Source of the DNA: a bacterium | GTDB taxonomy: Bacteria; CAIWAD01 | Assembly (NCBI GenBank): GCA_030685015.1 | Contig: JAUXWS010000020.1 | Location: 1 to 60,084 of the forward strand | Direction: 5' to 3' | DNA length: 60,084 nucleotides | Shown here: positions 3 through 20,960 of the stretch, in pieces | Position numbering within the stretch: the stretch's first letter is position 1 | Layout of the letters: each line of letters opens with the position of its first letter | The notes under the pieces: model-generated | What the model was told of the DNA's origin: nothing | Seen by the model: only the letters and a program-made list of their open reading frames with translations | The model's database searches: none | Made by a program: the position numbers and the translations under genes

Positions 3-665
3 ATCCGGACTTTCTGGGAGGACCGCGCAGAGCTGGACCTGCGGCCCTGTGCGCTGGAGGAGGCGATGCGGGAGGAGCGCCTGCCCGCCTGCGATTGGCT
101 GATCCTGGCCACGGACAACCACTCGTCCCGGCTGCGGGCGCTGGAGCTGTGGCGGCGCTGGGACTGCCGCCTGCTCAACCTGGCCACGGACATCCAGGTG
201 CGGGAAGGCGGCGCCCGCATGTGGGCGCGCGTCACCCTGCTGCCCCGGGACCGCAGCTGGTGCCTGGTCTGCGCCGAGGCGGTCAGCGCCGAGGAGGCGG
301 CCCGGGAAGAGGCGGGTCCAGACCTGCGCGAGCGCCTGCGGCGGGAAGGCTACCTGACCGGGGTGAAGGCGCCGGCTGTCTATCACTTGAACGGCCTGTG
401 CGCGTCCTGGGGGGTTGGCCTGCTGCATCAGGCCCTGTTGGACGGCGGCCTGGCCGAAGGGCGTGACCTCCTGCTCAACCCCGTCGACAGCCTGCTGATG
501 GAGGTGGAGCCGCCGGCCCGGGGCTGCTGGCACTGCGCCCCCGGCGAGGCCGCGGCGGCGCCGGACTCCCTGCCCAGGCTGACGCTGCCCGCGGGGCCGG
601 GGCGGTCCATGGAAGAGGGGCGCACCGCCCGCCGGGGGCCTGGCGGCGGCGCGCGCGGCTTGTGA
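3..665 (+). CDS. ThiF/MoeB/E1-like adenylyltransferase, C-terminal part (5' end outside window)
   Basis: The frame is open to the left edge, so the N-terminal half with the nucleotide-binding loop is missing. What remains looks like the second half of a ThiF/HesA/MoeB (ubiquitin E1-like) fold: a CDWLILATDNHSSR stretch matching the family's 'D.(V/I)..atDn..sR' strand and helix, then a strand ending in WCLVC, and a later CWHC. Two CxxC pairs are the usual structural zinc site of this family. Members adenylate the C-terminal glycine of a ubiquitin-like or sulfur-carrier protein. The last ~25 residues are Gly/Arg-rich and probably disordered. The Cas6-like gene follows within about 70 bases, so the two are likely co-transcribed. 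No carrier protein, E2 or JAB protease is visible. The family assignment is fairly safe; the substrate is unknown. Confidence 0.7.
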   Translation: MRTFWEDRAELDLRPCALEEAMREERLPACDWLILATDNHSSRLRALELWRRWDCRLLNLATDIQVREGGARMWARVTLLPRDRSWCLVCAEAVSAEEAAREEAGPDLRERLRREGYLTGVKAPAVYHLNGLCASWGVGLLHQALLDGGLAEGRDLLLNPVDSLLMEVEPPARGCWHCAPGEAAAAPDSLPRLTLPAGPGRSMEEGRTARRGPGGGARGL

Positions 666-737
666 GTGCAGGGGCGCTTTTCGACGTTCGCTTGGCCGAA
701 GGGCTCACCTGCCCGCGCCATCCATCGTGAGGACGCC

Positions 738-1733
738 GTGACACAAACCGACCTGCCCAACACCGATTCCGCCACGTGGAGCGATCTGACCACCCTGCCC
801 GTCTTCTCCTGCCGTGTGCGCCTGCGCTTCCGCACGGCGGGACAGCTGCCGCCCTTCAAGGCCTCCACCGTGCGTGGCGCCCTGGGTCACGCGCTCAAGG
901 GCCTGGTCTGCGAACAGCGCGGCCGCCCCACCTGCGAGGGCTGTCCCCTTGAACCCGCCTGTTCCTATCCATGGCTCTTCGAAGGGCGCAGTCCCCGGCC
1001 CAATCCCTGGTATCAGCAGTCCAACGCCTCGCCGCCGCTGCGTGTGCAGGTGCCGGACGAGGCCCTGGGCCAGGTGCGGCCCGGGGACGGCCTGGATTTC
1101 CGGCTGACCGTGTTCGGGGACGGCATCGCCTACACCGGTCTGTTGCTGCGCGCCATCGACGAAGTGGGTCAGAAGTTCGGCCTGGGGCGAGACCATTTGC
1201 GCGGCGCCGGCCACTTCCACCGCCTGCAGGTCGTGGACGAGGACACGGGGGAGCCCATCACCGACGGGTACAAGCTGCCTGAGCGGGTGCAGGCCCGGCC
1301 GCTGCGGGAACGCCTGCGCCGCCTGGAGCCGACTCCCTGGCGGCGCCTCCTGCTGACCACTCCCCTGCAGATGAAGCTGGGCGGGCGCCTCTGGACGGAT
1401 CCCGGCCAGATCCCGCCGCTGAAGGATTGGATCGAGTCCATCCAGCGCCGCCTCTATCTGCTCTGCTGGCACCTCGTGCCGGGCTTCGCCCTGGCGCCGC
1501 CCGCCGCCGTGCCGCCGGCGGGGCGCCTGCTCGCCTCCGACCTGCGCTGGCAGGAGTTGAACCGCTACTCCCATCGCGACGAGCAGTTGAAACCCCTCTC
1601 CGGCATGACGGGCTGGATCCTCTACCACGTGGACGGGACGGCGCTGGACGAGCTGCTCGCCGCCGCCGAGTGGCTGGGTGTGGGACGCCAGACAGTGATG
1701 GGTCTGGGGGAAGTCCAGATCCTGGACCGCTGA
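738..1733 (+). CDS. cas6: Cas6-type CRISPR pre-crRNA endoribonuclease (RAMP)
   Basis: The protein resembles the CRISPR-associated Cas6 family (PF10040 type), which cuts precursor CRISPR RNA within repeats. Visible marks are an N-terminal PPFKASTVRGALGHALKG segment, a Cys cluster (C..CEGCPLEPAC) followed by YPWLFE, a central GLGRDHLRGAGHF segment, and a C-terminal SGMTGW...GVGRQTVMGLGEVQI segment corresponding to the RAMP glycine-rich loop. I chose the GTG at 738 because GAGGA sits 4 bases upstream; an in-frame GTG at 666, right after the previous stop, would add 24 residues. No CRISPR repeats or other cas genes are visible, so any array must lie to the left or elsewhere. The neighbours, an E1-like enzyme and a NYN nuclease, are unusual for Cas6. 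Confidence 0.8.
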   Translation: MTQTDLPNTDSATWSDLTTLPVFSCRVRLRFRTAGQLPPFKASTVRGALGHALKGLVCEQRGRPTCEGCPLEPACSYPWLFEGRSPRPNPWYQQSNASPPLRVQVPDEALGQVRPGDGLDFRLTVFGDGIAYTGLLLRAIDEVGQKFGLGRDHLRGAGHFHRLQVVDEDTGEPITDGYKLPERVQARPLRERLRRLEPTPWRRLLLTTPLQMKLGGRLWTDPGQIPPLKDWIESIQRRLYLLCWHLVPGFALAPPAAVPPAGRLLASDLRWQELNRYSHRDEQLKPLSGMTGWILYHVDGTALDELLAAAEWLGVGRQTVMGLGEVQILDR

Positions 1734-1942
1734 CAGGCCGCTGCCGCCCCCACTCCCCCGCTGGAAACATGGCCAGTTGCCGCCTGCCCCGGGCCTGTCC
1801 GCGCGCCGTTCACATCTCCCTCGCTGATCCGGCGACGCCCATGGCGCACCCCGTAGACTCACCGACGTGGCAGTCCATTGAAAGGGACGGGATCCAGCCC
1901 CTTGGTTGTTCGCAAGGGAGCGACACACAAGAGGAGGATCCC

Positions 1943-2536
1943 ATGAAGACGCAGCGCGTGTTGGTGCTGGTGGACGAGGCCAATCTGACCTGCACGGTGA
2001 GGGGCTTCGACCGCTGGGTGGACTGGAAGCGGTTGAGGGACTACCTGGCCTGCGCCGAGGAGGGCCGGCAGCTGTTGGAGATGGCCGTCTATGTGGGCAT
2101 GCCGCCCACCCACCCCGACTTCAACGAGGTCGAGGACAAGAAGGACCGCTTCGTCTACTGGCTGGAGACCAACGGCTTCCTGGTGGTGACCCGGGAGGGC
2201 GTGCCGGCGCCGGCCAACGGCAACGGTGCGCGCGGACCGGGCTACAAGGCCAACGTGGATGTGCTGATGGCCATGGACGCCGTGTCCCTGGCGGCGGAGA
2301 TGCGCCCCGACGTGGTGGTCCTCGTCACCGGCGACGCCGACTTCGCCCCCCTGGCGCGCCACCTGCGGCGCAAAGGCATCCGCGTGGAGGCGGCGGGCAT
2401 CGAGGGCAGCATGTCCCGCGCCCTGCGCAGCGCCTGCAACGACTTCATCGACTTGGCGGAACTCCTCGCCGAGTTCCCGGGGGTCAATGGGCAGGAGGCG
2501 CCGGCGCTGGGCACCGCCGGCGGCCTCTTCGCCTGA
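1943..2536 (+). CDS. NYN-domain (LabA/DUF88-like) putative ribonuclease
   Basis: This 197-residue protein has the PIN-like NYN fold signature: VLVDEANL at the N-terminus, a central VDVLMAMDAV helix carrying an Asp, and VVLVTGDADFAPLARHLRR followed by GIRVEAAG. The Asp residues at these three places form the predicted metal-binding nuclease site. A GAGGAGG ribosome-binding site lies 5 bases before the ATG at 1943, which fixes this start over the longer upstream frame. It follows cas6 after about 210 non-coding bases. NYN proteins act on RNA in several settings. A link to Cas6 or to the E1-like enzyme is inferred only from position. Confidence 0.8.
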   Translation: MKTQRVLVLVDEANLTCTVRGFDRWVDWKRLRDYLACAEEGRQLLEMAVYVGMPPTHPDFNEVEDKKDRFVYWLETNGFLVVTREGVPAPANGNGARGPGYKANVDVLMAMDAVSLAAEMRPDVVVLVTGDADFAPLARHLRRKGIRVEAAGIEGSMSRALRSACNDFIDLAELLAEFPGVNGQEAPALGTAGGLFA

Positions 2537-2596: not shown

Positions 2597-4747
2597 TCAG
2601 GGGGCGGTCGTGCTCGGCTCTGGAGTCAGGGCCCCCAAGAGGCGGATGCTCTCGCCCTGGTGCAGAGGCGTACCGCCAAGACCCTGAGACGACATCTGGT
2701 CAAGAGTCTGCCGCACGGCCTCGCTGGGTGCGACACCCCGCGATAGCCGGTAGAAAAGCGTTTCAAGCAGCTGCTTTCGCAACGGGCCACTGGCGCCCAC
2801 GCGGCGGCGATAGGCCAGCACGATGCGGGCGCCGCCCAGCAGCGCCGCCATGGCCGGACCCAGGTCGTTCTCCGTGCAAGGATCCTGGACGGAACCGCTG
2901 TGGCAGCAATCCAACACGACCAGGCGGCAACCGGCGGCCTGTGCGAACAAGTCGCCCACATCCAGGCCCGCATCGGCTTGGTTGTGCTTGATCATGGAGC
3001 GATGGGGCTGCTGCGGATGGCTTTCCCCGTGGCCGGAGAGCAGCCAGATACCCGCCTGGCTGGGTTTCCGGAAGAACCGTGTGACGGCTTCCACTGACGC
3101 GAAATCGGCGGGAGGACCCGTTCGCCGGGACGGCGGCTCGACGCTCGATGAAAGCGGGCGGAAGAGCCAGTTCAGGTTGGGGCACTCCAGGATCAGGAGG
3201 CGCCCGCCCCACAACCCGTCCCCGTGGGGCAGGGCGTGCCAGGCGATGTCCTCGGCCTGGCCATCTGCGATGACGTGGATGGTTTCACCTGCGGGATAGC
3301 CTTCGAACATGAGTTGCCCCAGTCGCCCGCGGGAAGACAGGGATGAATCGTTGATCCAGTCCGCCGCCAGGGTGCGATGCTCCAATGCGCCACCGCCCGG
3401 CGCCGTGCGGATCAGGTGCCACTCCCGCTCCCCCTGGATGAGGCGGACGAAGGCCGGACATCCCGCCGCGAGGACGGAGTACTCCGGCAGGCGGGGCGGC
3501 TCCTGGACATGGACGGTCCCCTGATCCAGCTCCCGCTCCGGCTGGGACCCCAGCAGAATGGCCAGCAGCTGCTCCTGCAGGTGGGGCTTGGCCACCAGGT
3601 CCAGCACGTGCCGGTTGCAGGGGTGCTCGGCCTCGGTCAGGGCATGGTGCAGGCGCTGTTCGGGCGCTTGGCGGCGTGGAGCCAGACCGGGTGACAGCCA
3701 CAGGTCGGCATGGCGCTGATAGAGGGGCCGGGCGTGTTCATAGAGACCGCGATCCAGCCAATCCAGCCAGTCCAGCTGATCCGTGCCCAGGCCGTCCACC
3801 TGGTGCAGCCTCCGCATCAGGCGGTCCAAGCCGCGCCGCTCCCAATCGAGCCTGCGCAATCCCCGTCTGACGGCCAGGCGCTTGATAGCCGCCACGTGAA
3901 GCAATCCCGGGGCATGCAAGGGTCGGTTTGACAAGGCAAGAGCGAGGGCCTCCTCCTCCGGCATGGGCAGCAACCCGGGCCGATCTCCATCCCACGCCAG
4001 TTGCAGGCGGCAGCGCATGAAGAAAGCCCGGTGGAAGAGAGGCAGGCGGGCCTCCGCGGCGGGGCCGGGCAAGCAGCGCGCCAGGTCGCCCCAACGTGCA
4101 TTCCTCTGCAGCAGGTCGCAGGTCTTGCGGACCTGTTCCAGACGGAAGCCGGGCGCCAAGCGCCGCCCAAGACGCAAGGCCAGGCGCAGCGCATCTTCGG
4201 CCGTGGGCGCCGTCGTGGAGGAAGCCAGTTCGCCACGCGGATCGTTGACCCGGATGTCGGCGACCAGGCTGAGAACCTGGGCGCGCAGGGCCGTCGGCAA
4301 GCCCTCTTCCGCCAACAGGTCTTCCAAGCCATGCATCGCTTCGCTGTGCTGATAGCGGAAAGATTGCTGGCGGGCCTGCTCCAGCTTCAACAGCCACAAC
4401 CACGTGGACCGACGGTCGCCTTCGCCCGGCTGGGCGGCGGCCGCCAGAAGATCCCGCCCGGTTTGGAGCAGGTGTTCGGCGGCCCGGTGCCGGCGGCAGG
4501 TGGATTGGATGCGGGCGGCCCAGTAGGCTTCCAGGGCATGGCGGGGTGCGCTCGATTCCAGGCGGCGGCGGGCCTCCTGCGGCCGGCCGTCCATGAGCAG
4601 GCGGATGGCGGGCAACCACGGGTGGCCGCCGGGGGGGGGGCCTTGCCGGCTGGGTTCCACCCGGCGCAAGGCCAGGGCTTCCAGAACGTGCACGTGATCA
4701 GTGGACAGGGGGCAGCCCACCAATGGTTTGCCTGATGGCTTGATCAT
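2597..4747 (-). CDS. CHAT-domain caspase-like protease with N-terminal helical repeats
   Basis: The C-terminal third is a CHAT (caspase-HetF-associated) peptidase domain. The catalytic His is His573 in LLSGHGES and the catalytic Cys is most likely Cys615 in VLDCCHSGS. The later stretch with LETLFYRLSRGVAPSEAV is also typical of CHAT proteins. Residues ~50-400 are Leu/Ala/Arg-rich helical repeats, TPR-like, the usual substrate- or partner-binding part. The gene is last in a minus-strand operon and overlaps the preceding unknown gene by 50 bases if the ATG at 4747 is used. No good ribosome-binding site precedes this ATG; a GTG at 4693 is an alternative. A run of ten C in the coding strand (4631-4640) lies close to the 5' end. 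CHAT proteases act in conflict and cell-death systems, including with type III CRISPR effectors. Confidence 0.85.
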   Translation of the reverse strand: MIKPSGKPLVGCPLSTDHVHVLEALALRRVEPSRQGPPPGGHPWLPAIRLLMDGRPQEARRRLESSAPRHALEAYWAARIQSTCRRHRAAEHLLQTGRDLLAAAAQPGEGDRRSTWLWLLKLEQARQQSFRYQHSEAMHGLEDLLAEEGLPTALRAQVLSLVADIRVNDPRGELASSTTAPTAEDALRLALRLGRRLAPGFRLEQVRKTCDLLQRNARWGDLARCLPGPAAEARLPLFHRAFFMRCRLQLAWDGDRPGLLPMPEEEALALALSNRPLHAPGLLHVAAIKRLAVRRGLRRLDWERRGLDRLMRRLHQVDGLGTDQLDWLDWLDRGLYEHARPLYQRHADLWLSPGLAPRRQAPEQRLHHALTEAEHPCNRHVLDLVAKPHLQEQLLAILLGSQPERELDQGTVHVQEPPRLPEYSVLAAGCPAFVRLIQGEREWHLIRTAPGGGALEHRTLAADWINDSSLSSRGRLGQLMFEGYPAGETIHVIADGQAEDIAWHALPHGDGLWGGRLLILECPNLNWLFRPLSSSVEPPSRRTGPPADFASVEAVTRFFRKPSQAGIWLLSGHGESHPQQPHRSMIKHNQADAGLDVGDLFAQAAGCRLVVLDCCHSGSVQDPCTENDLGPAMAALLGGARIVLAYRRRVGASGPLRKQLLETLFYRLSRGVAPSEAVRQTLDQMSSQGLGGTPLHQGESIRLLGALTPEPSTTAP
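4631..4640. repeat. G10/C10 homopolymer inside the CHAT gene
   Basis: Ten consecutive G on the plus strand, that is ten C in the coding strand, at about codons 36-39 of the CHAT protease gene (PPP flanked by Gly). Tracts of this length near a 5' end are prone to slipped-strand length change, which would shift the frame and switch the protein off. The present length leaves the frame open. It could equally be a site of assembly error. Confidence 0.9.
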
Positions 4748-5489
4748 CCCCAGACAGCACGGCGTGCACGGCCCGGAGCCAGGGATCGCGGCTGGCCTCC
4801 ATCTCCGCCAGGTGTTCCTGGGGGGAAAGGAACTCCGGACCGGCCGCCCGCCTCGCCTCGTCCGCCTGCTCCGCCAGATGCTGGCCCAAGACGATCAACT
4901 TGGCCTGTTTTGACTGTCGCAAATCGTCCGGTACTCGTTCCACCAAGCCGAAGAACTTGTCGTGCAGGGCCATGTCCAGTGTCCGCGCCAGGGGCGCCAT
5001 GCGCAGGCTCGTCTGCACCAGGCGCAGGTTGCGCACATCCCGCGTGCTGGGCAAGCCCGTCGCCGGATCCAGGGGAATGGGCCATCCGCTGTCCCAGGCC
5101 AGGGTCGGCGGGAAGTCCTCCGCCTTTGGGCGGTCCGCCAGGGCCAGCACGCCCTTCCAAAACGCGCCAAGCAGTGGCAGGGCCGCCGGGGTCAGCTCGC
5201 CATCCAGTTCGGCCAGGTCACCGGCCAGGACGCTTTGGAAGTTGCTGAACTGGAGCAGCACGGGTTCCAGGTCGACCGGGACAAAGGGCGCCCACAGCAC
5301 CAGGTCGCTGTCCACCAGTTGATGGGCGCTGCCATCCGCCAGCGGCACCACGGTGACGGCCTCCAGACCGCAGGGCAGTTCCTCGGGACCGGTCAACACC
5401 AGCAGGCGGGGCACCAGGCTGTTGGCGCCATCCGCATCCCGGGGGATCCAGATTCCGCCCGGTTTGATGGTTTGGGAAGTGGTCGTCAC
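4698..5489 (-). CDS. Unknown protein encoded in the CHAT operon
   Basis: I do not recognise the family. The predicted product is 263 residues, soluble, Leu/Pro-rich, with Trp-containing segments in the first half (GGIWIPRDADG, LVLWAPFVPV) and a charged helical second half (DDLRQSKQAKLIVLGQHLAEQADEARRAAG). The GTG at 5489 is preferred because GAGGA lies 7 bases upstream and it follows the previous stop by 13 bases; a longer frame starting at 5618 would overlap the upstream gene by over 100 bases. The 3' end overlaps the start of the CHAT protease, so the two are probably translationally coupled. It may be a partner or a regulated target of the protease; that is inference from gene order only. 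Confidence 0.7.
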   Translation of the reverse strand: MTTTSQTIKPGGIWIPRDADGANSLVPRLLVLTGPEELPCGLEAVTVVPLADGSAHQLVDSDLVLWAPFVPVDLEPVLLQFSNFQSVLAGDLAELDGELTPAALPLLGAFWKGVLALADRPKAEDFPPTLAWDSGWPIPLDPATGLPSTRDVRNLRLVQTSLRMAPLARTLDMALHDKFFGLVERVPDDLRQSKQAKLIVLGQHLAEQADEARRAAGPEFLSPQEHLAEMEASRDPWLRAVHAVLSGDDQAIRQTIGGLPPVH

Positions 5490-5502
5490 GGGTTGATCCT
5501 CA

Positions 5503-6690
5503 TCAGTCAAGAGACGTGTGCCGGGGAACATCGATGGGTTGCCGACGGGCGCAGGCGAGCAGGCTCTCATACATCTTGCGCTGGTCATCTTGCATACTGA
5601 GCACTCGGCACAAGTCATTCAAAGCCGGCTGGATATGCCGTCTCCATTGCTCATCCAGCGCCCGCCAGCTGACTCCGAACTCGGGAGCAACCGACTTCAT
5701 GATGGTCGTCAGGGCGATCTTCTGATCTTCGCCAAGTAGTTGATTCTCCAGTTCAGGCACCACCCGCAACAGCAAGCGACGGTGCTCGGTGCGCATGCGC
5801 CGCAGGAAGTGGACCACGACCCGGTCCAGCTCTTCGTGCTCCCCTGCCCCCTCCGCGCTAGCCCCTGCATCTCGCCGGGCATTTCGAACGCCGTCCCCCG
5901 CCTCACCTGATTCATCCAGCGTTGGCTGTTGTCCAATCAATCTATCCCCCGGCTGCGGTTGGGACGATCCATCCTCGGAGCCGGAATGCAGCCAGGTCGA
6001 ATCCAAGGAGCTTGGCATGTGCATGAACGCCCCTTGGTAATCCAGCACGGTCATGAACTGCTGGCATTGGTGAGCCTGCAAGGTGAATTCGAAGGTTGTG
6101 TCGATGAACCCGTTCAGCCTGGCGCGCTCCACGTCCAATTCCGGCAGAAGTCCGTTGTCCAATTGACGGGCCAGGCTTTCCAGGTCCGCGTTGTACTTCG
6201 CGACCGGCAACGACCACGCGCTGGGCGCCTTCCATGGATCTCTGGCTTCCTCGATGGTCTGGTAGGTCGGTTGGGCCAAGATCTCCCGAATGCGTCGGTT
6301 GGCCGTCTTCCATCGCTCCTGAGTTCCCTGCTCATCAGGGATGATCTTGAGGCTGTTGCGCAGGCACTGGCGCAGATAGGCCGCCAAGCTAGTCTCGCGC
6401 TCCACGGCACTCCACTTGGAGACGTAATCCCGCTCGAAGATCTCACCCTGGAAGCGATGCAGGACACTTTCCATCAAGGCAAGCCAGGTGGGTGGAGAAT
6501 CGAACTCGATGTAGCGGGCCAACTGCACGTCCAAGCGAGTTGAACAAACCCCCCGGACCACCTGATGGCGCAGGGCCAGCAGCCAAGCGTTGTAGTCCGG
6601 ATCCGCCGCCCCCCCTGCGTCGCCCTTGGCCCGCCACCTCAGCCAAAGGGCATGGAGGTTCTGCTCATGTGCTGGGAGATAAGTGGGCAT
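5503..6690 (-). CDS. Unknown two-part protein, possibly a divergent sigma-like factor
   Basis: This 395-residue protein has a helical N-terminal part (1-230), an acidic Ser/Gly/Glu-rich linker (~235-295), and a basic helical C-terminal part (~297-395). The segment around SLAAYLRQCLRNSLKI resembles the region-2 helix of sigma-70 proteins ('.aYL...arN'). The C-terminal ALTTIMKSVAPEFGVSWRAL stretch could be a region-4-like helix-turn-helix. Both resemblances are weak and need a profile search. AAGGAT lies 8 bases upstream of the ATG at 6690. The gene overlaps the previous one by 26 bases and is followed after 12 bases by the next unknown gene, so it belongs to the CHAT operon. The disordered linker would suit proteolytic release by the CHAT enzyme, which is speculation. 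Confidence 0.65.
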   Translation of the reverse strand: MPTYLPAHEQNLHALWLRWRAKGDAGGAADPDYNAWLLALRHQVVRGVCSTRLDVQLARYIEFDSPPTWLALMESVLHRFQGEIFERDYVSKWSAVERETSLAAYLRQCLRNSLKIIPDEQGTQERWKTANRRIREILAQPTYQTIEEARDPWKAPSAWSLPVAKYNADLESLARQLDNGLLPELDVERARLNGFIDTTFEFTLQAHQCQQFMTVLDYQGAFMHMPSSLDSTWLHSGSEDGSSQPQPGDRLIGQQPTLDESGEAGDGVRNARRDAGASAEGAGEHEELDRVVVHFLRRMRTEHRRLLLRVVPELENQLLGEDQKIALTTIMKSVAPEFGVSWRALDEQWRRHIQPALNDLCRVLSMQDDQRKMYESLLACARRQPIDVPRHTSLD

Positions 6691-7825: not shown

Positions 7826-7959
7826 GGTCGACTCCTTGCTTTCACAATGCAAGGGGCTGACCGGTTGAGTTTTCAAGTATATTTCGGCTACAACGTGCGC
7901 CGGTTGGCTGGACCTGCTGTTTGTCTGCCAGTCAGGCTGTTTCACGATGGCGGTGGCTC

Positions 7960-8340
7960 CTCAAGTGGGCGCATCCAGCGGGCGGACGGCGAAGTCGCCT
8001 GCGCCGACCGCGGTGGCCATGGCGCGCGTGCTTCAGTGCGTGGCCTGCGGTGCCACGATCTGGGGGGTCGCTCGCACGATCTCCGCTTCGTCGACGGTTC
8101 AGGGCTTGCCCGGGCGCAGTTTCCTCCCGCGATGCCCTTGACCAGACCGATGCCAAATCGCCGGGCGATTTCCTTGTTCAGCAAATCTTCGGCGGCCAGC
8201 AGGAAGATCCGGGCGCGCTCATTGAAGCGAACGGCCGACCTCGTCGGGTCCGACCCTCGTGCAGCTTGCGCTCCTCGGCGCTCAGCGTGTTGGTCGGCGC
8301 GGCGCACATGGATGGCGTGTTCCTGGTTGTGAAGCGCTTT
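7960..8340 (-). pseudogene. IS630-family transposase remnant, N-terminal half
   Basis: Pieces of an IS630-type transposase are spread over three minus-strand frames. LSAEERKLHEG is in one frame, RARIFLLAAEDLLNKEIARRFGIG in a second (the family's helix-turn-helix), and VDEAEIVRATPQ...ATH*STRAMA in the third, matching the family's 'ATHWSTR.MA' with the Trp changed to a stop. At least two frameshifts and stop codons are present. The catalytic DDE half is absent. It is a dead fragment and marks past insertion next to the CHAT operon promoter. Confidence 0.75.
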
Positions 8341-8489
8341 GAACCAGGAGAGCGAAACACATTCGCGCCCACAATCGCGCGGCACGAACACCCAGCATGG
8401 AAGGATAAAAGGGCGATTCATTGTCCTTCCCAAACGGATGAATGACGGAAGGGCAAGCGCCGCGCTTGATCCCGGCGCGACCGTCCCGA

Positions 8490-8733
8490 ATGGCGCAGCA
8501 TCCCGCCCGTGGCCTTTTCCAGGCTCAGCCGCACGGGCTCCATGGCCAGCCTGGCATAGGTCTCCGTCGTCGTCTTCGATTCGTGTCTCAGGATATTTTT
8601 GATAACCTCCAGCGGCCTGCCCGTGTCGATCTGGAAGGTGGATAGCCTGCGCCTGAGGTTGTGCATGCGGGCCCATCAGGCCGGCGCGCTCCAGGAGGCG
8701 GATCCGCCCGACCTTGGGATTGGTCATGGGTTT
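8490..8733 (-). pseudogene. Tyrosine recombinase (integrase) C-terminal remnant
   Basis: One minus-strand frame contains HNLRRRLSTFQIDTGRPLEV, followed by ILRHESKTTTETYARLA. This is the C-terminal catalytic part of a phage-type integrase (HxLR, the second H, and the Tyr nucleophile in ETYA). The preceding residues (VGRIRLLERAGLMG) are in another frame, so a frameshift separates them. The rest of the gene is missing. It suggests that this stretch was once the edge of an integrated element. Confidence 0.7.
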
Positions 8734-8868
8734 GCTTGGGTTGCGCCCCGGAAAGACCCACGAGCTGACGGCCCGGGCGCGGCGGGCAAGGAGAATCTGC
8801 CGCACCGCTCCACCCGCACCACGGCAGCTCGCCGTCCGCCCATCACGGCTCTTCCTTTTTGCATGCTG

Positions 8869-8927
8869 CACGCCGCTTGCCCCAAGGTTCCGCATCCTCG
8901 ATGCGTCACGCATGATCCCGGACCTGG
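8869..8927. repeat. Dispersed 59-bp palindromic repeat, copy 1
   Basis: This sequence recurs at 13725-13783 with the same length and about 80% identity by eye. The core is the hairpin CGCATC-CTC-GATGCG, overlapped by a second palindrome ATGCGT-C-ACGCAT, and followed by GATCCCGGACCTGG. Conservation of the stem, with a changed loop in copy 2 (GTC), suggests a REP/MITE-like element. Confidence 0.65.
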
Positions 8928-9575
8928 AACAGTGCCTTGGCGCTTGGGTTGTGGGCAGTGGATGCGCCTTTGCTCCTTACGCTTCGGGACAGCCGGGTAC
9001 TGCGCATCTCTGTACTGCGCATCTCTATCCAATCCGGGCCAGCTGCTTGCGCTTGGTCACCGCACGGGCCATCGAGCTGGAGGAGGACTGGCTGACGGAT
9101 CGGCGCAATCTCAACATGGCGCTATTGCTGGAAGCGATGGGCGAGGCCGGGAGGATGGCCGGCTGATTTTGCGCAAGATCCCCGACTTGTCTTTGCCAAC
9201 GACCAGTACACCCAGCATGACAAGGCGGCCGACATCCCCGCTCCGGACATGTCCTTGCCAGCTGATGACGCTGGTTCCATCGTTTTGATCGGGCAGCCAC
9301 TACATCTTGAAGGACAGGATGGTCGCCAGACCACAACATCCTGCGCAAGTACTTGACTGACAACAAATGCCGCGATGGCGTGATTTGTGCACGCCGTGCC
9401 TTGTCGCGGAGGTGGTGCTTGCGCACGCCATGCGGACCAGGAAACGCAGCTTTGAACAGAGTCTGCCGCCATCCCGCTGGGCTTGATCTCGTGCGGTGCG
9501 GCAAGAGGTCGTGCGCACCCATGTTCCATGTTGCGGAAGCGCCCCCGCTGGAAGGTGGCGCGGGAAGGGAGCCCA
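8928..9575. other. Gene-free, degenerate stretch between element remnants and copA
   Basis: No intact gene is supported here. A 15-base direct repeat (TACTGCGCATCTCTG/A) occurs twice in tandem at 8998-9027. A short plus-strand reading frame near 9060-9166 ends with ARAIELEEDWL...NMALLLEAMGE and looks protein-like, but it has no start signal and no recognised family, so it may be a decayed gene tail. The copA ribosome-binding site lies at the right end. Confidence 0.5.
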
Positions 9576-11885
9576 ATGATCCAACCCGGCCAAGCCGACA
9601 CGGCCGTCGACCCCATCTGCGGCATGAGGGTGGAGACGGCCACCGCGCTGATTGCCGAGCGCAATGGACTGACCGCCTACTTCTGCAGCGAGCACTGCCG
9701 TCAGACCTTCCTGTCACATCCGCCTGATGCGGGGCGGGTGAAGCAGGTGGCAAGGGCGGGGGGGACGGTCGCCTATACATGCCCCATGCATCCCGAGGTG
9801 CTGCAGGACCATCCCGGCAGTTGCCCCACCTGCGGCATGGCGCTGGAACCAAGGACGGGCATGACGGGCACGGACGACCAGGCGAATCCCGAGCTGCTTG
9901 ACATGAGCCGGCGCTTGTGGTTCGCCGCCGCGCTGACCGCGCCGCTTGTCCTCGTGGCGATGGGCCACCTGATTCCCGGCCAGCCGATCTCGCACATGCT
10001 CACCCTGCGGGCCCAGACGCTGCTCCAGCTGGCCCTGGCGACGCCGGTCTGCACATGGGCGGCGTGGCCCTTTTATGTCCGCGCGGTGCAATCCGTCAAG
10101 AACAGAAGCCTCAACATGTTCACGCTGATCGGCCTGGGCGTGGGCGTAGCTTTTGCCTACAGCGTGGTGGCCGCCTTGCTTCCAGGCCTCTTTCCAACGT
10201 CCTTCCGCATGCACGGCGAAGCGGCCGTCTACTTCGAATCCGCCGGCGCCATCGTGACACTGATCCTGCTGGGCCAGGTGATCGAGCTGCGCGCGCGCAG
10301 CCGGACGGGACAGGCCGTACGGCTGCTGCTCGGCCTGCAGGCCAAGACCGCGCGGCTGCTCATGGATGACGGCACAGAGCGGGATGTGGCCCTGGACCAG
10401 GTGCAGGTCGGACAGCGTCTACGCGTGCGGCCGGGCGAGAAGGTGCCGGTGGACGGAGTCGTCCTGGAAGGCTCCAGCTCGCTGGACGAGTCCATGGTCA
10501 GCGGCGAGGCGATCCCGGTGGAAAAGGGCGTGGGCGATCGGCTCATCGGTTCGACCGTGAACGGTGGCGGCGGCCTCGTCATGCGCGCGGAGAAGGTGGG
10601 CGCCGAGACCCTGCTGGCGAGGATCGTGGCGCTGGTCGCCGAGGCCCAGCGCAGCCGTGCGCCGATCCAGCGACTGGTCGATGTCGTGGCCGCCTGGTTC
10701 GTGCCGGCCGTCATCCTCTGCGCCGTCCTGACCTTCATCGCCTGGTCCCTTCTGGGACCCGAGCCGCGTCTGTCCCACGCCCTCATCAATGCGGTGGCGG
10801 TGCTCATCATCGCCTGTCCCTGCGCTCTGGGCCTGGCCACGCCCATGTCGATCATGGTGGCCACGGGCAAGGGCGCTGGCATGGGCATCCTGTTCAGGAG
10901 CGCCGAGGCCATCGAGCTGCTGCGCCAGGTCGACACGCTGGTGGTCGACAAGACGGGCACGCTGACGGAGGGAAAGCCCAAACTCGTCAGTGTCGTGGTG
11001 GCGCAGGGCGGGGAGGAGCGCTCCCTGCTGCGGCAGGCGGCCAGCCTGGAACGGGCCAGCGAACACCCCCTCGCCGCCGCCATCGTCGCGGGCGCCGAGG
11101 AGCGAGGCCTGGTGTTGACCGATGTGCGGGACTTCTCATCCAGCACCGGCCTGGGGGTCAAGGGGCGGGTGGAGGAGCGCGAGGTCGCGCTGGGCAACCT
11201 GTCCTTCATGGCGAGCCTGGGAGTCCTGCCCGGCGAGCTGGCGACCCGCGCGGACGAGATGCGGCGCGATGGCCGGACCGTCCTGTTCGTGGCCGTCGAC
11301 GGCCAGGTGGCGGGCCTGCTCGGCGTGGCCGATCCGCTCAAGGCCACGACCGCCGAGGCCATTCGCACCCTGCACGCCGAAGGCGTCCGGATCGTCATGC
11401 TGACAGGAGACAACCGCACCACGGCCGAAGCCGTCGCGCGAAGCCTGGGCATCGACGAGATCCTGGCTGATGTGCTGCCCGGCCAGAAGGCCGACGTGAT
11501 CAAGCGCCTGCAGGCGGAAGGGCGCGTCGTGGCCATGGCCGGCGATGGCGTCAACGACGCCCCGGCGCTGGCCCAGGCGCAGGTCGGCATCGCCATGGGC
11601 ACGGGGACGGACGTGGCGATGGAGAGCGCGGGCGTCACCCTCGTCCAGGGCGACCTGCGGGGCATCGCGCGGGCCCGCCGGCTCAGCCGCCGCACCATGT
11701 CGAACATCAAGCAGAACCTGTTCTTCGCCTTCGTCTACAACACGGTGGGCATCCCCGTCGCCGCGGGTGTGCTCTATCCGTTGTTTGGCGTGCTGCTCAG
11801 CCCGGTGATGGCCGCGGCCGCCATGAGTCTCAGTTCGGTTTCGGTGATCGCCAACGCCCTGCGCCTGCGTGGTGCGAAGCTGTAG
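9576..11885 (+). CDS. copA: Copper-exporting P1B-type ATPase
   Basis: This 769-residue pump exports Cu(I) from the cytoplasm at the cost of ATP. In order: a YHS metal-binding domain (DPICGM...YFCSEHC, residues ~10-50), a heavy-metal-binding domain (YTCPMHPEV...CPTCGMAL, ~68-95) in place of the classical HMA domain, eight predicted membrane helices, the A-domain SGEA motif, the ion-site Cys414-Pro-Cys416 in [11 protein letters not shown], the phosphorylated Asp458 in [11 protein letters not shown], the SEHPLA motif, and [17 protein letters not shown] indicates a copper/silver type. The ATG at 9576 is preceded by a GGAAGGGAG site. A small DUF302 protein and a membrane protein follow and probably belong to the same metal-resistance group. 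A short GC hairpin follows the stop codon (near 11908-11920), only weak as a terminator. Confidence 0.92.
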
Positions 11886-14522: not shown

Positions 14523-14560
14523 GCGCCCGGTACGCCTGGGGAGGCATCCGTGTCTCGGCC

Positions 14561-14688
14561 CAGGGCATCACCAGGGCATCACCAGGGCAACACCAGGGCA
14601 TCACCAGGGCATCACCAGGGCATCACCAGGGCATCACCAGGGCAACACCAGGGCAACACCAGGGCATCACCAGGGCATCACCAGGGCA
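14561..14688. repeat. 11-bp tandem repeat, 11 full copies plus a partial one
   Basis: The unit is CAGGGCATCAC. Copies 3, 8 and 9 read CAGGGCAACAC; all others are identical. Eleven full units cover 14561-14681, followed by CAGGGCA. Because 11 is not a multiple of 3, all three frames are read in turn and the open frame across it (about 14550-14963) is not a credible gene. It lies 38 bases after the lipoprotein stop codon. The near-identity suggests recent expansion. Confidence 0.95.
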
Positions 14689-17743: not shown

Positions 17744-18699
17744 ATGATACACGCCACCCGTCAACCCGCGGCCGGTTCCGGCCTGGTCCTGGCCAGCCTG
17801 TTGTCGCTCCTGCTCCTGCTGGCCGCCTGCGTCGGGGGGGAGCCGGCGGCGGACCGGCCCCGCGTCGTCTGCACCACCGGCATGATCACCGACCTGGCAG
17901 CCCGCATCGGGGGTGACCGCCTCCAGGTGGACGGCCTGATGGGGCCGGGGGTCGATCCGCACCTCTACAAGGCGAGCGCCGGCGATCTCCACCTGCTCAG
18001 CCGCGCCGATCTCGTGCTCAGCAACGGCCTGCATCTGGAGGCCCGTCTGGGGGAGGTGCTGGCCAACCTGCGTGAGGCTCGCGCCGTCGCCCTCTGCGAG
18101 GGATTGGAGGGAGTCGACCTGCTGGTCGCCGCCGGGGGCGGCGATCTGCCTGATCCGCATCTCTGGTTCGACGTGGCGGCCTGGAGCCGCGTCGCCCGGC
18201 GCATCGGCGAGGAGCTGGCCCGCCTCGATCCGCCGGGGGCCGCCAGCCACCGGGAGCGCGCCGCCCGCCTGGCGGAGGGCCTGGACAGCCTGGACGCCGC
18301 CATCCGCGCCCGCACGGCCGCCCTGCCGCCCGAGCGCCGCGTCCTGGTCACCGCCCACGACGCCTTCCAGTACTTTGGCCGCGCCTACGGCTTCGAGGTG
18401 CGGGGCCTGCAAGGCATTTCCACGGTGGCCGAGGCGGGGGCGCGGGACGTGCAGGAGCTGGCCGCCTTCCTGGCCGAGCGGCGCATCCCGGCCATCTTCG
18501 TGGAGTCCAGCGTGCCACGCCGCACCCTGGAGGCCGTGCGCGAGGCGGCCCAGGCCGCCGGGCACGAGGTGGCCATTGGCGGCGAACTCTACTCCGACGC
18601 CCTGGGCAGCGCCGGCACGCCCGCCGCCACCTACGAGGGGATGGTGGCCCACAACGTGGACACCATCCTCCAGGCGCTCGCCGTGCCAAAGGAGGCGCC

Positions 18700-18703
<4 letters not shown>
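17744..18703 (+). CDS. Metal ABC importer, substrate-binding lipoprotein (TroA/ZnuA family)
   Basis: A 319-residue cluster A-I (ZnuA/TroA/MntA) binding protein. It has a lipoprotein signal ending in LLLAAC. Metal ligands are visible as His in [12 protein letters not shown], His in DPHLWFDV, an acidic residue in FVESSVP, and Asp in GELYSDALG. Unlike typical ZnuA it has no long His-rich loop, which fits a Mn/Fe/Zn TroA-like protein better. It is the first gene of a four-gene importer; its stop overlaps the ATPase start (ATGA). Confidence 0.9.
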
Positions 18704-19457
<754 letters not shown>

Positions 19458-19461
<4 letters not shown>

Positions 19462-20354
19462 CGGGCCTGGACCACACCGCCCGCGTCGTGCTGTCCGGCT
19501 GCGCCCTCATCGGCCTGCTGGGCGGCGTGCTGGGCGTCTTCGTCGTGCTGCGCCGCCAGAGCCTGGTGGGGGACGTGGTCTCCCACGCCGCCCTGCCCGG
19601 CATCGTGCTCGCCTTCTGGCTGCTCGGCAGCCGCGCCGCCCCCGTCCTGGCGGCCGGCGCCATCGTGGCCGGCCTGGCCGGCATGTTGGTGGTGACCTTC
19701 ATCCTGCGGCACTCCCACATCCGCGAGGACGGCGCCCTGGGCCTGGTCCTGGCCGGCTTCTTCGGCTTGGGCGTCATGCTCCTCACCTGGATCCAGGGAC
19801 GCCCCGACGCCGCCCAGGCCGGGCTCGACCGCTACCTCTTCGGCAGCGCCGCCTCGCTGTTGGTGCGCGACCTGTGGTGGATGGGCGGCGCCGCGCTGGC
19901 CGTGGTCGGCGTGCTGGTCCTCCTGTGGAAGGTGTTCGCGCTGACCGCCTTCGACCCCGACTTCGCCGCCCAGCTGGGCTGGCCCACGGTGCGGCTGGAC
20001 TTCATTCTCACCCTGCTCACCGTGCTGGTGATCGTGCTGGGGCTGCAGACGGTGGGCGTGGTGCTGATGAGCGCCCTGCTCGTCGCCCCGGCTGTCGCCG
20101 CCCGCCAATGGACGGACCGCCTGGGCGCCATGACCCTCCTCGCCGCGCTGGCGGGGGCCCTGGCCGGCCTCCTGGGTGGCTGGGCCAGTTTGACGGTGGA
20201 GCGGATGCCCACCGGCCCCGCCATCGTGCTGGCCGCCGCGCTGCTGGTGGCCCTCTCGCTGCTTGCCTCGCCCCGGCGCGGCTTGCTGGGGGTGCTGCTG
20301 GCGCGGCGTCGGGCGAGGCGCGGAGGGGAGGCGCTGCCGGCCGGCCGGGCCTGA
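19458..20354 (+). CDS. Metal ABC importer, permease 1 (ABC-3 family)
   Basis: A 298-residue permease with eight or nine predicted helices. It carries the ABC-3 family signature: [20 protein letters not shown] near the N-terminus, [11 protein letters not shown] with the conserved acidic coupling region, and [20 protein letters not shown] late. It starts at GTG 19458, overlapping the ATPase stop. The end of the gene lies inside copy 1 of a 315-bp tandem duplication, so its last few codons have a partner sequence in the intergenic region. Confidence 0.93.
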
Positions 20355-20960
20355 GCAGCGATCCGCCCTGCCTTCCCCCGCTGGGCGGCTGGTGGGACCT
20401 GTCCACCGCCGCGGGCAGGGCGCCCCTTTGGCCGAAGCTATGGGGGCGCGCTGTCCAGGCCGCGTGACCCGGCGTGAATCTGGATGGCCGGGGAGGCTGG
20501 ATACAGCGAACTTTTCGGGAAAACCCAGGTGCCCCGGGAGGGTGGGGTGGCGGTGGGAGGGAAAACTGGGGTTCTTCGGAAAACTGTCCCGAGGCCGGGC
20601 TGCCTCTGCAGCACGCCCGGGCAGCCATCCCCGCCCTGGATGATGGCGCGGCCGGCCGGCCGCGCCTGAGCAGCGATCCGCCCTGCCTCCCCCGCTGGGC
20701 AACTGGAGAGACCTGTCCGCCGCCGCAGGCAGGGCACCCTTATGGGAGGCGTGGCGGGGGCGCGCTGTCCAGGCCGCGTGACCCGAGGTGAATCTGGATG
20801 GTTGGAGAGGCCGGGTACAGCGAACTTTTCGGGAAAACCCAAGTGCCCCGGGAGGGTGGGGTGGTGGTGGGAGGGAACACAGGGATTTTTCGGAAAACTG
20901 TCCCGTGGCCGGCCTGCCTCCCCGGCACACGCGGGAGGCCATCGCCGGCCCGGATGATTG
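20341..20960. repeat. Tandem duplication of ~305 bp at 315-bp spacing between two permease genes
   Basis: Copy 1 is about 20341-20646 and copy 2 about 20656-20960. Both run from CCGGCC(G)...GCCTGAGCAGCGATCC through GCGCGCTGTCCAGGCCGCGTGACC, TACAGCGAACTTTTCGGGAA, GTGCCCCGGGAGGGTGGGG and TTCGGAAAACTGTCCC, to a GATGAT(T)GG end. They differ at scattered sites. Copy 1 starts inside the last codons of permease 1. No coding capacity is convincing, so this 640-base gap inside an operon is non-coding. It could carry a regulatory RNA element or be a duplicated intergenic repeat. Confidence 0.85.

What the first reader, a model, noticed from the sequence alone, without database searches (positions are those of the whole stretch)
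3..2536. E1-like enzyme, Cas6 and a NYN nuclease in one cluster without a CRISPR array
An E1/ThiF-type adenylyltransferase is followed by a Cas6-type endonuclease and a NYN RNase. Cas6 normally stands with an array and interference genes; none are in view here. An E1-like enzyme beside Cas6 hints at a ubiquitin-like modification step tied to RNA processing, or at a split locus whose type III/I genes lie to the left.
Basis: partly seen in the sequence, partly recalled or inferred. Interest (0 to 1): 0.65.

Follow-up and report, generated by a model that had tools for sequence, protein, structure and literature searches.

The report
Ubiquitin-like module tied to CRISPR immunity
The left edge of this contig holds the cut-off end of a gene cluster that, in dozens of related genomes, puts a complete ubiquitin-like protein-tagging system (tag, E2, and a combined tag-cleaving/tag-activating enzyme) together with an RNA-cutting enzyme inside RNA-targeting CRISPR loci, suggesting that a ubiquitin-like tag regulates this kind of bacterial immunity.

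Summary
The window starts at a contig end with the last ~184 positions of a JAB–E1 (ThiF) enzyme, followed on the same strand by a Cas6 and a NYN RNase. No array lies in the window, but the same genome carries, on contig C82, an 11-repeat array, Cas2, an RT–Cas1 fusion and type III-B Cmr/Cas10 genes, with no other detectable Cas6. The E1 is not a chance neighbour. Window E1 and window NYN, searched separately against 72,556 plasmids, give as their best hits the same three cyanobacterial type III-B loci. A scan of GTDB genomes returned 45 members of this E1 clade (43 cyanobacterial, 2 planctomycete). In 36 of 36 fully scorable loci the order is NYN–Ubl–E2–JAB/E1, and about 37 of 45 have cas genes in the fetched DNA. 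The Ubl is a ~65-residue β-grasp protein ending in an invariant KG, sometimes with a short tail to be trimmed; the E2 has YPxxPP and an invariant Cys; the E1 carries a JAMM protease. A Chromatium locus has array–NYN–E2–E1–Cas6, the E1–Cas6 neighbours of the window. E2 and the E1 N-terminus are missing from this assembly. The tagged substrate is unknown.

The parts
3..665 (+). C-terminal part of a JAB-E1 (ThiF/E1-like) adenylyltransferase, 5' end cut off by the contig end (about 273 N-terminal model positions missing)
   Evidence: Aligns to a profile of JAB-E1 sequences at E 1e-58, model positions 274-457 of 458 (the profile includes the window row); ATDNH, CLVC and CWHC retained; best plasmid hits are three cyanobacterial type III-B loci, found with the window sequence alone.
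666..1733 (+). Cas6 endoribonuclease (alternative start GTG at 738); the only PF10040 match in this genome
   Evidence: Pfam PF10040 E 2.9e-10; PADLOC Cas6 E 8e-57; no other PF10040 match in G000; 30% identical to the Cas6 that follows JAB-E1 in Chromatium locus L087.
1943..2536 (+). NYN-domain RNase of the CRISPR/Ubl-linked subfamily
   Evidence: Pfam NYN E 7.5e-26; 45-51% identical to the NYN of cyanobacterial and planctomycete Ubl-E2-E1 operons and 31-33% to the NYN of the distant group; best plasmid hits are the same three loci as for the E1.

Best explanation
The cluster is the truncated end of a type III-B CRISPR accessory operon that encodes a ubiquitin-like conjugation pathway. Inferred mechanism: (1) the JAMM protease domain at the N-terminus of the JAB-E1 fusion trims the Ubl precursor to its C-terminal Gly and can also remove conjugates; (2) the E1 domain adenylates that Gly; (3) the Ubl passes to the invariant Cys of the E2; (4) it is attached to a component of the CRISPR RNA machinery. 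My preferred target is the RNA-handling and adaptation side, meaning NYN and/or RT-Cas1-Cas2, because NYN is the steadiest partner and the module usually lies next to Cas1-Cas2 and the array. Conjugation would switch that component on or off, as CBASS conjugation primes its cyclase. In this genome Cas6 would cut the pre-crRNA of the C82 array and NYN would trim crRNA or RNA protospacers. Shown: the genes, their conserved order, conserved catalytic residues, and a type III-B locus with an array in the same genome. Inferred: catalytic activity, the substrate, and the physical link of C82 to the window.
For: E1 clade scan: 52 loci, 45 in the clade; 36 of 36 scorable loci have the order NYN-Ubl-E2-E1 on one strand; 37 of 45 have Cas1, Cas2 or Cmr/Cas10 genes, 34 of 38 on loci of 10 kb or more (one of these, L081, may be only an intron RT). 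Ubl: 65 residues, invariant C-terminal KG with short variable tails in some members; the model has the beta-grasp order, pLDDT 86; best fold matches are ubiquitin, with ThiS, MoaD and SAMP1 among the top 50. E2: 27 of 27 members match Prok-E2_E; YPxxPP and Cys118 conserved; profile hits in PDB are led by E2s; top fold match is BubB, then E2/UEV proteins. E1: JAMM residues and ATP site conserved; PDB match to Citrobacter BubCD, E 6e-51 over 7-415. Window E1 and NYN independently find the same three plasmid loci first. Distant loci: Chromatium array-NYN-E2-E1-Cas6; Methylococcaceae NYN-E1-E2-RT-Cas2; Dictyobacter arrays-NYN-E2-E1. Of seven JAB-E1 loci outside the clade, none has an annotated cas gene within 8 kb (6 kb for L091); six are annotated multiubiquitin operons and one is unannotated. 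Own genome: array, RT-Cas1, Cas2, Cmr.
Against: E2 was not found in this genome or its four held relatives, and only the C-terminal part of the E1 is present; an assembly gap explains this but is not shown. The window E1 sits on a long branch (3.34) and its placement in the clade (81/100) is not a starred one. The planctomycete locus L076 carries the module with no cas gene or array in 15.6 kb. C82 has lower GC (64%) than the window (69%) and shares no end sequence with it, although their tetranucleotide correlation is 0.98. No substrate, conjugate or phenotype is known.
Confidence: 0.68

Rival explanations
1. The E1-E2-Ubl module is a separate antiphage operon of the Bub/Bil type that often sits in the same defence islands as type III-B CRISPR but does not act on it.
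For: JAB-E1 operons of other clades occur on plasmids without cas genes; L076 carries the module without CRISPR.
Against: In this clade the module is wedged between array/Cas2 and Cmr genes in one orientation and order across cyanobacterial families; NYN, itself known from type III-B loci (PMC11346440), is part of the operon; a diverged second group again lies with arrays, RT-Cas2 or Cas6.
Confidence: 0.17
2. The Ubl is a sulphur carrier (ThiS/MoaD-like) and the E1 feeds sulphur into an RNA or cofactor modification used by the CRISPR system, rather than tagging proteins.
For: The Ubl's only weak Pfam match is ThiS-like and the fold search also returns ThiS and MoaD; E1/ThiF enzymes serve both roles (established knowledge).
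Against: An E2-fold protein with an invariant Cys and a JAMM protease accompany it, and some Ubls carry C-terminal tails that need trimming; I saw no sulphurtransferase in the operon.
Confidence: 0.07
3. In this particular genome the E1 fragment is a decayed remnant, and only Cas6 and NYN are in use.
For: No E2 or E1 N-terminus was found in the assembly; long branch; decayed copies exist in Hormoscilla loci L078, L080 and L081.
Against: The fragment starts exactly at the contig end, has an intact frame and keeps the conserved ATDN, CLVC and CWHC residues.
Confidence: 0.12

Closest known systems
Bacterial polyubiquitin-type operons (Bub; multiubiquitin protein, E2/UBC, JAB-E1 fusion, DUF6527; row 6e of Iyer et al. 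2006, PMC1779556)
   Same: JAB fused to the N-terminus of E1 (PDB BubCD, E 6e-51); an E2-fold protein (BubB is the top fold match); a small Ub-like protein.
   Different: Single ~65-aa Ubl instead of a multiubiquitin protein, E2 of the Prok-E2_E family, NYN and type III-B cas genes in the operon; none of these seen in the multiubiquitin controls.
Type III-B CRISPR-Cas with RT-Cas1 (PMC5513706, PMC5541045)
   Same: RT-Cas1, Cas2, array and Cmr/Cas10 genes in the own genome and in the related loci.
   Different: Addition of Ubl, E2 and JAB-E1; the two cited papers do not mention ubiquitin, NYN or ThiF in their main text.
CRISPR-associated NYN of Bacteroides fragilis type III-B (PMC11346440)
   Same: NYN gene next to Cas6 in a type III-B setting; non-specific Mn2+-dependent ssRNA nuclease with a proposed role in crRNA maturation or RNA-spacer trimming.
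   Different: The paper reports no E1, E2 or Ubl (ubiquitin is not mentioned); that locus has CorA and NrN instead.
CBASS type II Cap2/Cap3 conjugation (PMC10097602)
   Same: E1/E2/JAB chemistry attached to a nucleotide-signalling immune system, proposed here as the functional analogue (from its abstract and established knowledge).
   Different: No CD-NTase in the operon; the modifier here is a separate Ubl.
CRISPR auxiliary genes in the deep-clustering survey of Altae-Tran et al. 2023 (PMC10910872)
   Same: The Fig. 6 legend names ThiF, and NYN, ThiS and Prok-E2 among putative auxiliary genes, so parts of the association were seen.
   Different: No description as a ubiquitin-like pathway in the readable text ('ubiquitin' occurs 0 times); its supplement could not be read here.

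Membership tests
Cas6 | Cas6 C-terminal RAMP domain (PF10040) above the curated cut-off | tested here: met
   41.2 bits against a cut-off of 25; PADLOC E 8e-57.
Cas6 | Glycine-rich loop near the C-terminus | tested here: met
   GVGRQTVMGLGEV read directly in the translation.
Cas6 | Cleaves its cognate repeat | not testable with these tools
   Candidate repeat on C82; needs an assay.
NYN RNase | NYN domain with conserved catalytic aspartates | tested here: met
   PF01936 E 7.5e-26; D11, D106, D131 and D133 invariant in the alignment.
E1 / JAB-E1 fusion | E1 adenylation fold with ATDN and paired CxxC | tested here: met
   Profile E 1e-58 for the part present; ATDNH, CLVC, CWHC.
E1 / JAB-E1 fusion | GxGGxG nucleotide site and N-terminal JAMM protease | tested here: inconclusive
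   Conserved in the relatives, but this part lies beyond the contig end in the window.
Ubiquitin-like conjugation operon | Ubl with C-terminal glycine beside the E1 | tested here: inconclusive
   Met in 40 of 45 clade loci; in the window genome the upstream DNA is missing and the Ubl was not searched for separately.
Ubiquitin-like conjugation operon | E2 with catalytic Cys beside the E1 | tested here: inconclusive
   Met in 42 of 45 clade loci; no match in the window genome, whose upstream DNA is missing.
Multiubiquitin (Bub, row 6e) operon | Tandem-repeat multiubiquitin protein and DUF6527 | tested here: not met
   Clade Ubls are single domains of about 65 aa; no such genes are annotated in L031, L033 or L090.
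CBASS type II | CD-NTase in the operon | tested here: not met
   No CD-NTase annotated in L031, L033 or L090 and none of the three window genes is one.
Type III-B CRISPR-Cas (RT-Cas1) | cas10/cmr, cas1, cas2 and array in the same genome | tested here: met
   Contig C82.
Type III-B CRISPR-Cas (RT-Cas1) | Physical linkage to the window cluster | tested here: inconclusive
   C82 ends inside the array and C20 starts inside the E1; no end overlap.

The most novel reading that the evidence does not exclude
Reversible conjugation of a dedicated ubiquitin-like protein to NYN or RT-Cas1 controls RNA-derived spacer acquisition or crRNA maturation in type III-B CRISPR systems, which would be post-translational control of CRISPR immunity by a CRISPR-encoded ubiquitin-like pathway.
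Probability: 0.35. Interest if true: 0.92.

Novelty: new variant of a known kind. Interest (0 to 1): 0.76.

Why it matters
If the operon works as predicted, a ubiquitin-like pathway (modifier, E2, E1, protease) is an integral part of an RNA-targeting adaptive immune system in many cyanobacteria and in distant phyla. That would extend ubiquitin-like control in bacteria from CBASS and Bub/Bil-type systems to CRISPR, and it gives a ready model (cultured Nostoc, Microcystis and Calothrix carry the whole operon) for asking how RNA spacer acquisition and crRNA maturation are regulated. It also gives the CRISPR-associated NYN nucleases, whose role is open, a set of partners.

Tried and rejected
Searching genome contigs with Cas6 alone found nothing, and Cas6 has no match in the four other held genomes of the phylum. 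PF00899 does not detect the window's fragment or any ThiF in the own genome, so the assignment rests on the relatives. Profile searches for the missing JAB-E1 N-terminus and E2 in the own genome returned nothing beyond the window fragment. Viral contigs hold no E1 relative and only one weak E2 match. The idea that the minus-strand CHAT-like gene at 2597-4747 is a type III-E Csx29 was not supported by sequence. Cas6 in the cyanobacterial loci: none found with four Cas6 seeds; the PADLOC list was cut at 25 families, so its absence is not proven. Literature searches found no paper describing a ubiquitin-like pathway within type III CRISPR loci; only open-access text is held.

Full report
What is in the window. 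The window is contig C20 of a 3.6 Mb, 105-contig genome (97% complete) and begins at the contig's first base. The first frame (3-665) has no start. Cas6 (666-1733) and a NYN RNase (1943-2536) follow on the same strand. Cas6 and NYN are recognised by Pfam and PADLOC. The first frame is not named by Pfam or NCBIfam, but it shows the ThiF/E1 signature ATDNH...CLVC...CWHC and matches a profile of full-length relatives over positions 274-457 of 458 with E = 1e-58 (the profile contains the window row, but the plasmid search was made with the window sequence alone). It is therefore the end of an E1, cut by the contig edge.

The genome does have a CRISPR system. Contig C82 (47.7 kb) begins inside an array of 11 identical 35-nt repeats, followed by Cas2, an 892-aa RT-Cas1 fusion, a CARF membrane protein, Cmr6, Cmr4, Cas10/Cmr2 and Cmr1. 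The RT-Cas1 shows no Cas6 domain ahead of the RT (the RT match starts at residue 33), and PF10040 rings only once in the genome, in the window. The window's Cas6 is thus the only detectable candidate to process that array.

The E1 belongs to a CRISPR-linked clade. Searched against 72,556 plasmids, the window E1 matches only three, all cyanobacterial, all in type III-B loci with cas genes and, in two of the three, a separate annotated RT gene. Searched separately, the window NYN gives the same three records first, at 4e-48 or better, and then nothing better than 4e-12. A genome-collection scan with the E1 alignment returned 52 loci: 43 cyanobacterial and two planctomycete loci at 46-84% identity, and seven distant ones. 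Labelling their reading frames with seed proteins showed one conserved order, NYN - (coiled coil) - Ubl - E2 - JAB/E1, usually preceded by RT-Cas1-Cas2-array and followed by Cas10/Cmr genes. In 36 of 36 loci where all four core genes could be scored the order and strand agree. Cas1, Cas2 or Cmr/Cas10 genes are present in 37 of 45 loci, and in 34 of 38 with at least 10 kb of DNA (the one hit in L081 may be only an intron reverse transcriptase). Exceptions: short contigs, two decayed Hormoscilla loci (L078, L080), L065 (an array but no cas gene in reach) and the planctomycete L076 (neither).

The parts look like a working ubiquitin-like pathway. The Ubl is about 65 residues with an invariant C-terminal Lys-Gly. 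In most members that Gly is the last residue; in others 2-9 variable residues follow it, as in ubiquitin precursors that must be trimmed. Its predicted structure has the beta-grasp order of strands and helix (pLDDT 86), and the best fold matches are ubiquitin, with ThiS, MoaD and SAMP1 among the top 50 (E about 0.01, probability near 1). The small protein before the E1 is an E2: 27 of 27 members match Prok-E2_E, the YPxxPP motif and one Cys are conserved in all or nearly all, its profile finds eukaryotic E2s first in PDB (weak), and its model finds BubB, then E2/UEV structures (weak). The E1 carries an N-terminal JAMM protease: E35, HxH 100-102 and SxxD 111-114 are conserved at 90% or more together with the E1 ATP site. 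Pfam finds Prok-JAB in 7 of 14, and the nearest solved structure is the JAB-E1 fusion BubCD. In the planctomycete L075 and in the distant group (L084, L085, L087) the Ubl-like segment is fused to the E2.

Distant relatives repeat the association and the window's own arrangement. Chromatium L087 reads array - NYN - E2 - JAB/E1 - Cas6; its Cas6 (Pfam 5e-12) is the only relative of the window's Cas6 among all these loci, 30% identical. Methylococcaceae L084 reads NYN - JAB/E1 - E2 - RT - Cas2. Dictyobacter L085 has repeat arrays, then NYN - E2 - JAB/E1. Seven JAB-E1 loci outside the clade show no annotated cas gene within 6-8 kb: six are annotated multiubiquitin operons and one (Abditibacteriota) is unannotated. 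The CRISPR link is therefore a property of these clades, not of JAB-E1 in general. In the E1 tree the window groups with the planctomycete members (81/100), but on a long branch, so its exact place is unsure.

What is missing. The missing E1 N-terminus and an E2 were sought in the own genome with broad profiles and not found; the window's own E1 fragment rang as positive control for the first search. The Ubl was not searched for separately. The simplest reading is a gap between contig ends: C82 stops inside its array and C20 starts inside the E1, and in cyanobacteria the array is what usually precedes this operon. No sequence overlap supports the join, so it remains inference. Composition does not decide it: tetranucleotide correlation is 0.98, GC 64% against 69%.

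How it probably works. A dedicated Ubl is trimmed by JAB, activated by E1, carried by E2 and attached to a CRISPR component. NYN and the RT-Cas1-Cas2 adaptation proteins are the leading targets, because NYN is the steadiest partner and the module lies beside adaptation genes and array. In B. fragilis a type III-B NYN next to Cas6 is a non-specific Mn2+-dependent RNase for which roles in crRNA maturation or RNA-spacer trimming were proposed (PMC11346440), so a nuclease needing control is a plausible substrate. CBASS is the functional precedent: there E1/E2 conjugation enhances the immune enzyme (PMC10097602, title and abstract). Nothing here shows the substrate.

What is known. Bacterial JAB-E1/E2/Ubl operons were described in 2006 (PMC1779556), and type III-B RT systems and CRISPR NYN are known. 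The 2023 deep-clustering survey names ThiF, NYN, ThiS and Prok-E2 in its Fig. 6 legend as CRISPR-linked, without describing a ubiquitin-like pathway in the text I could read. The 2017 RT-CRISPR papers, a 2024 type III survey and the 2025 classification do not mention ubiquitin or ThiF in their main texts. I therefore call it a new variant of a known kind: a ubiquitin-like accessory module of type III-B CRISPR, partly glimpsed before.

Noticed in passing
window 2597-4747 (-): 716-aa protein with caspase/CHAT-like motifs (SGHG and DCCHSG), weak NCBIfam hit to an EACC1-associated caspase (E 0.005), followed on the same strand by two unnamed genes (4698-5618, 5503-6690); possibly another defence operon beside the CRISPR accessory genes.
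   Followed up: partly
window 14560-14688: 11-bp tandem repeat, about 12 copies (CCAGGGCATCA).
   Followed up: no
window 20330-20958: Two 314-bp tandem copies, 86% matching, with a strong GGCCGG palindrome.
   Followed up: no
L015 (G000:C82) 7915-10155 (-): 746-aa metallo-beta-lactamase/beta-CASP-like protein encoded inside the type III-B locus, without a PADLOC match; beta-CASP nucleases are otherwise the mark of type VII.
   Followed up: no
L015 (G000:C82) 17842-18723 (-): Protein matching PADLOC DHH_CorA (E 2e-7) at the end of the Cmr operon, hinting at SAM-AMP-type signalling, although a CARF membrane protein is also present.
   Followed up: no
L031, L037, L038, L041, L042, L043, L045, L051: A second, divergently encoded NYN gene with an N-terminal helical extension lies just upstream of the module in a subset of cyanobacteria.
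   Followed up: no
L076: Planctomycete copy of NYN-Ubl-E2-JAB/E1 with no cas gene or array in 15.6 kb: either array in trans or use outside CRISPR.
   Followed up: partly
L078, L080, L081: Hormoscilla symbionts carry broken E1 copies, a sign of decay of the system.
   Followed up: no
L094 (Bradyrhizobium guangxiense plasmid): Multiubiquitin operon with an extra phosphotransferase gene lies about 4-6 kb from CBASS genes (phospholipase, DncV-like cyclase).
   Followed up: no
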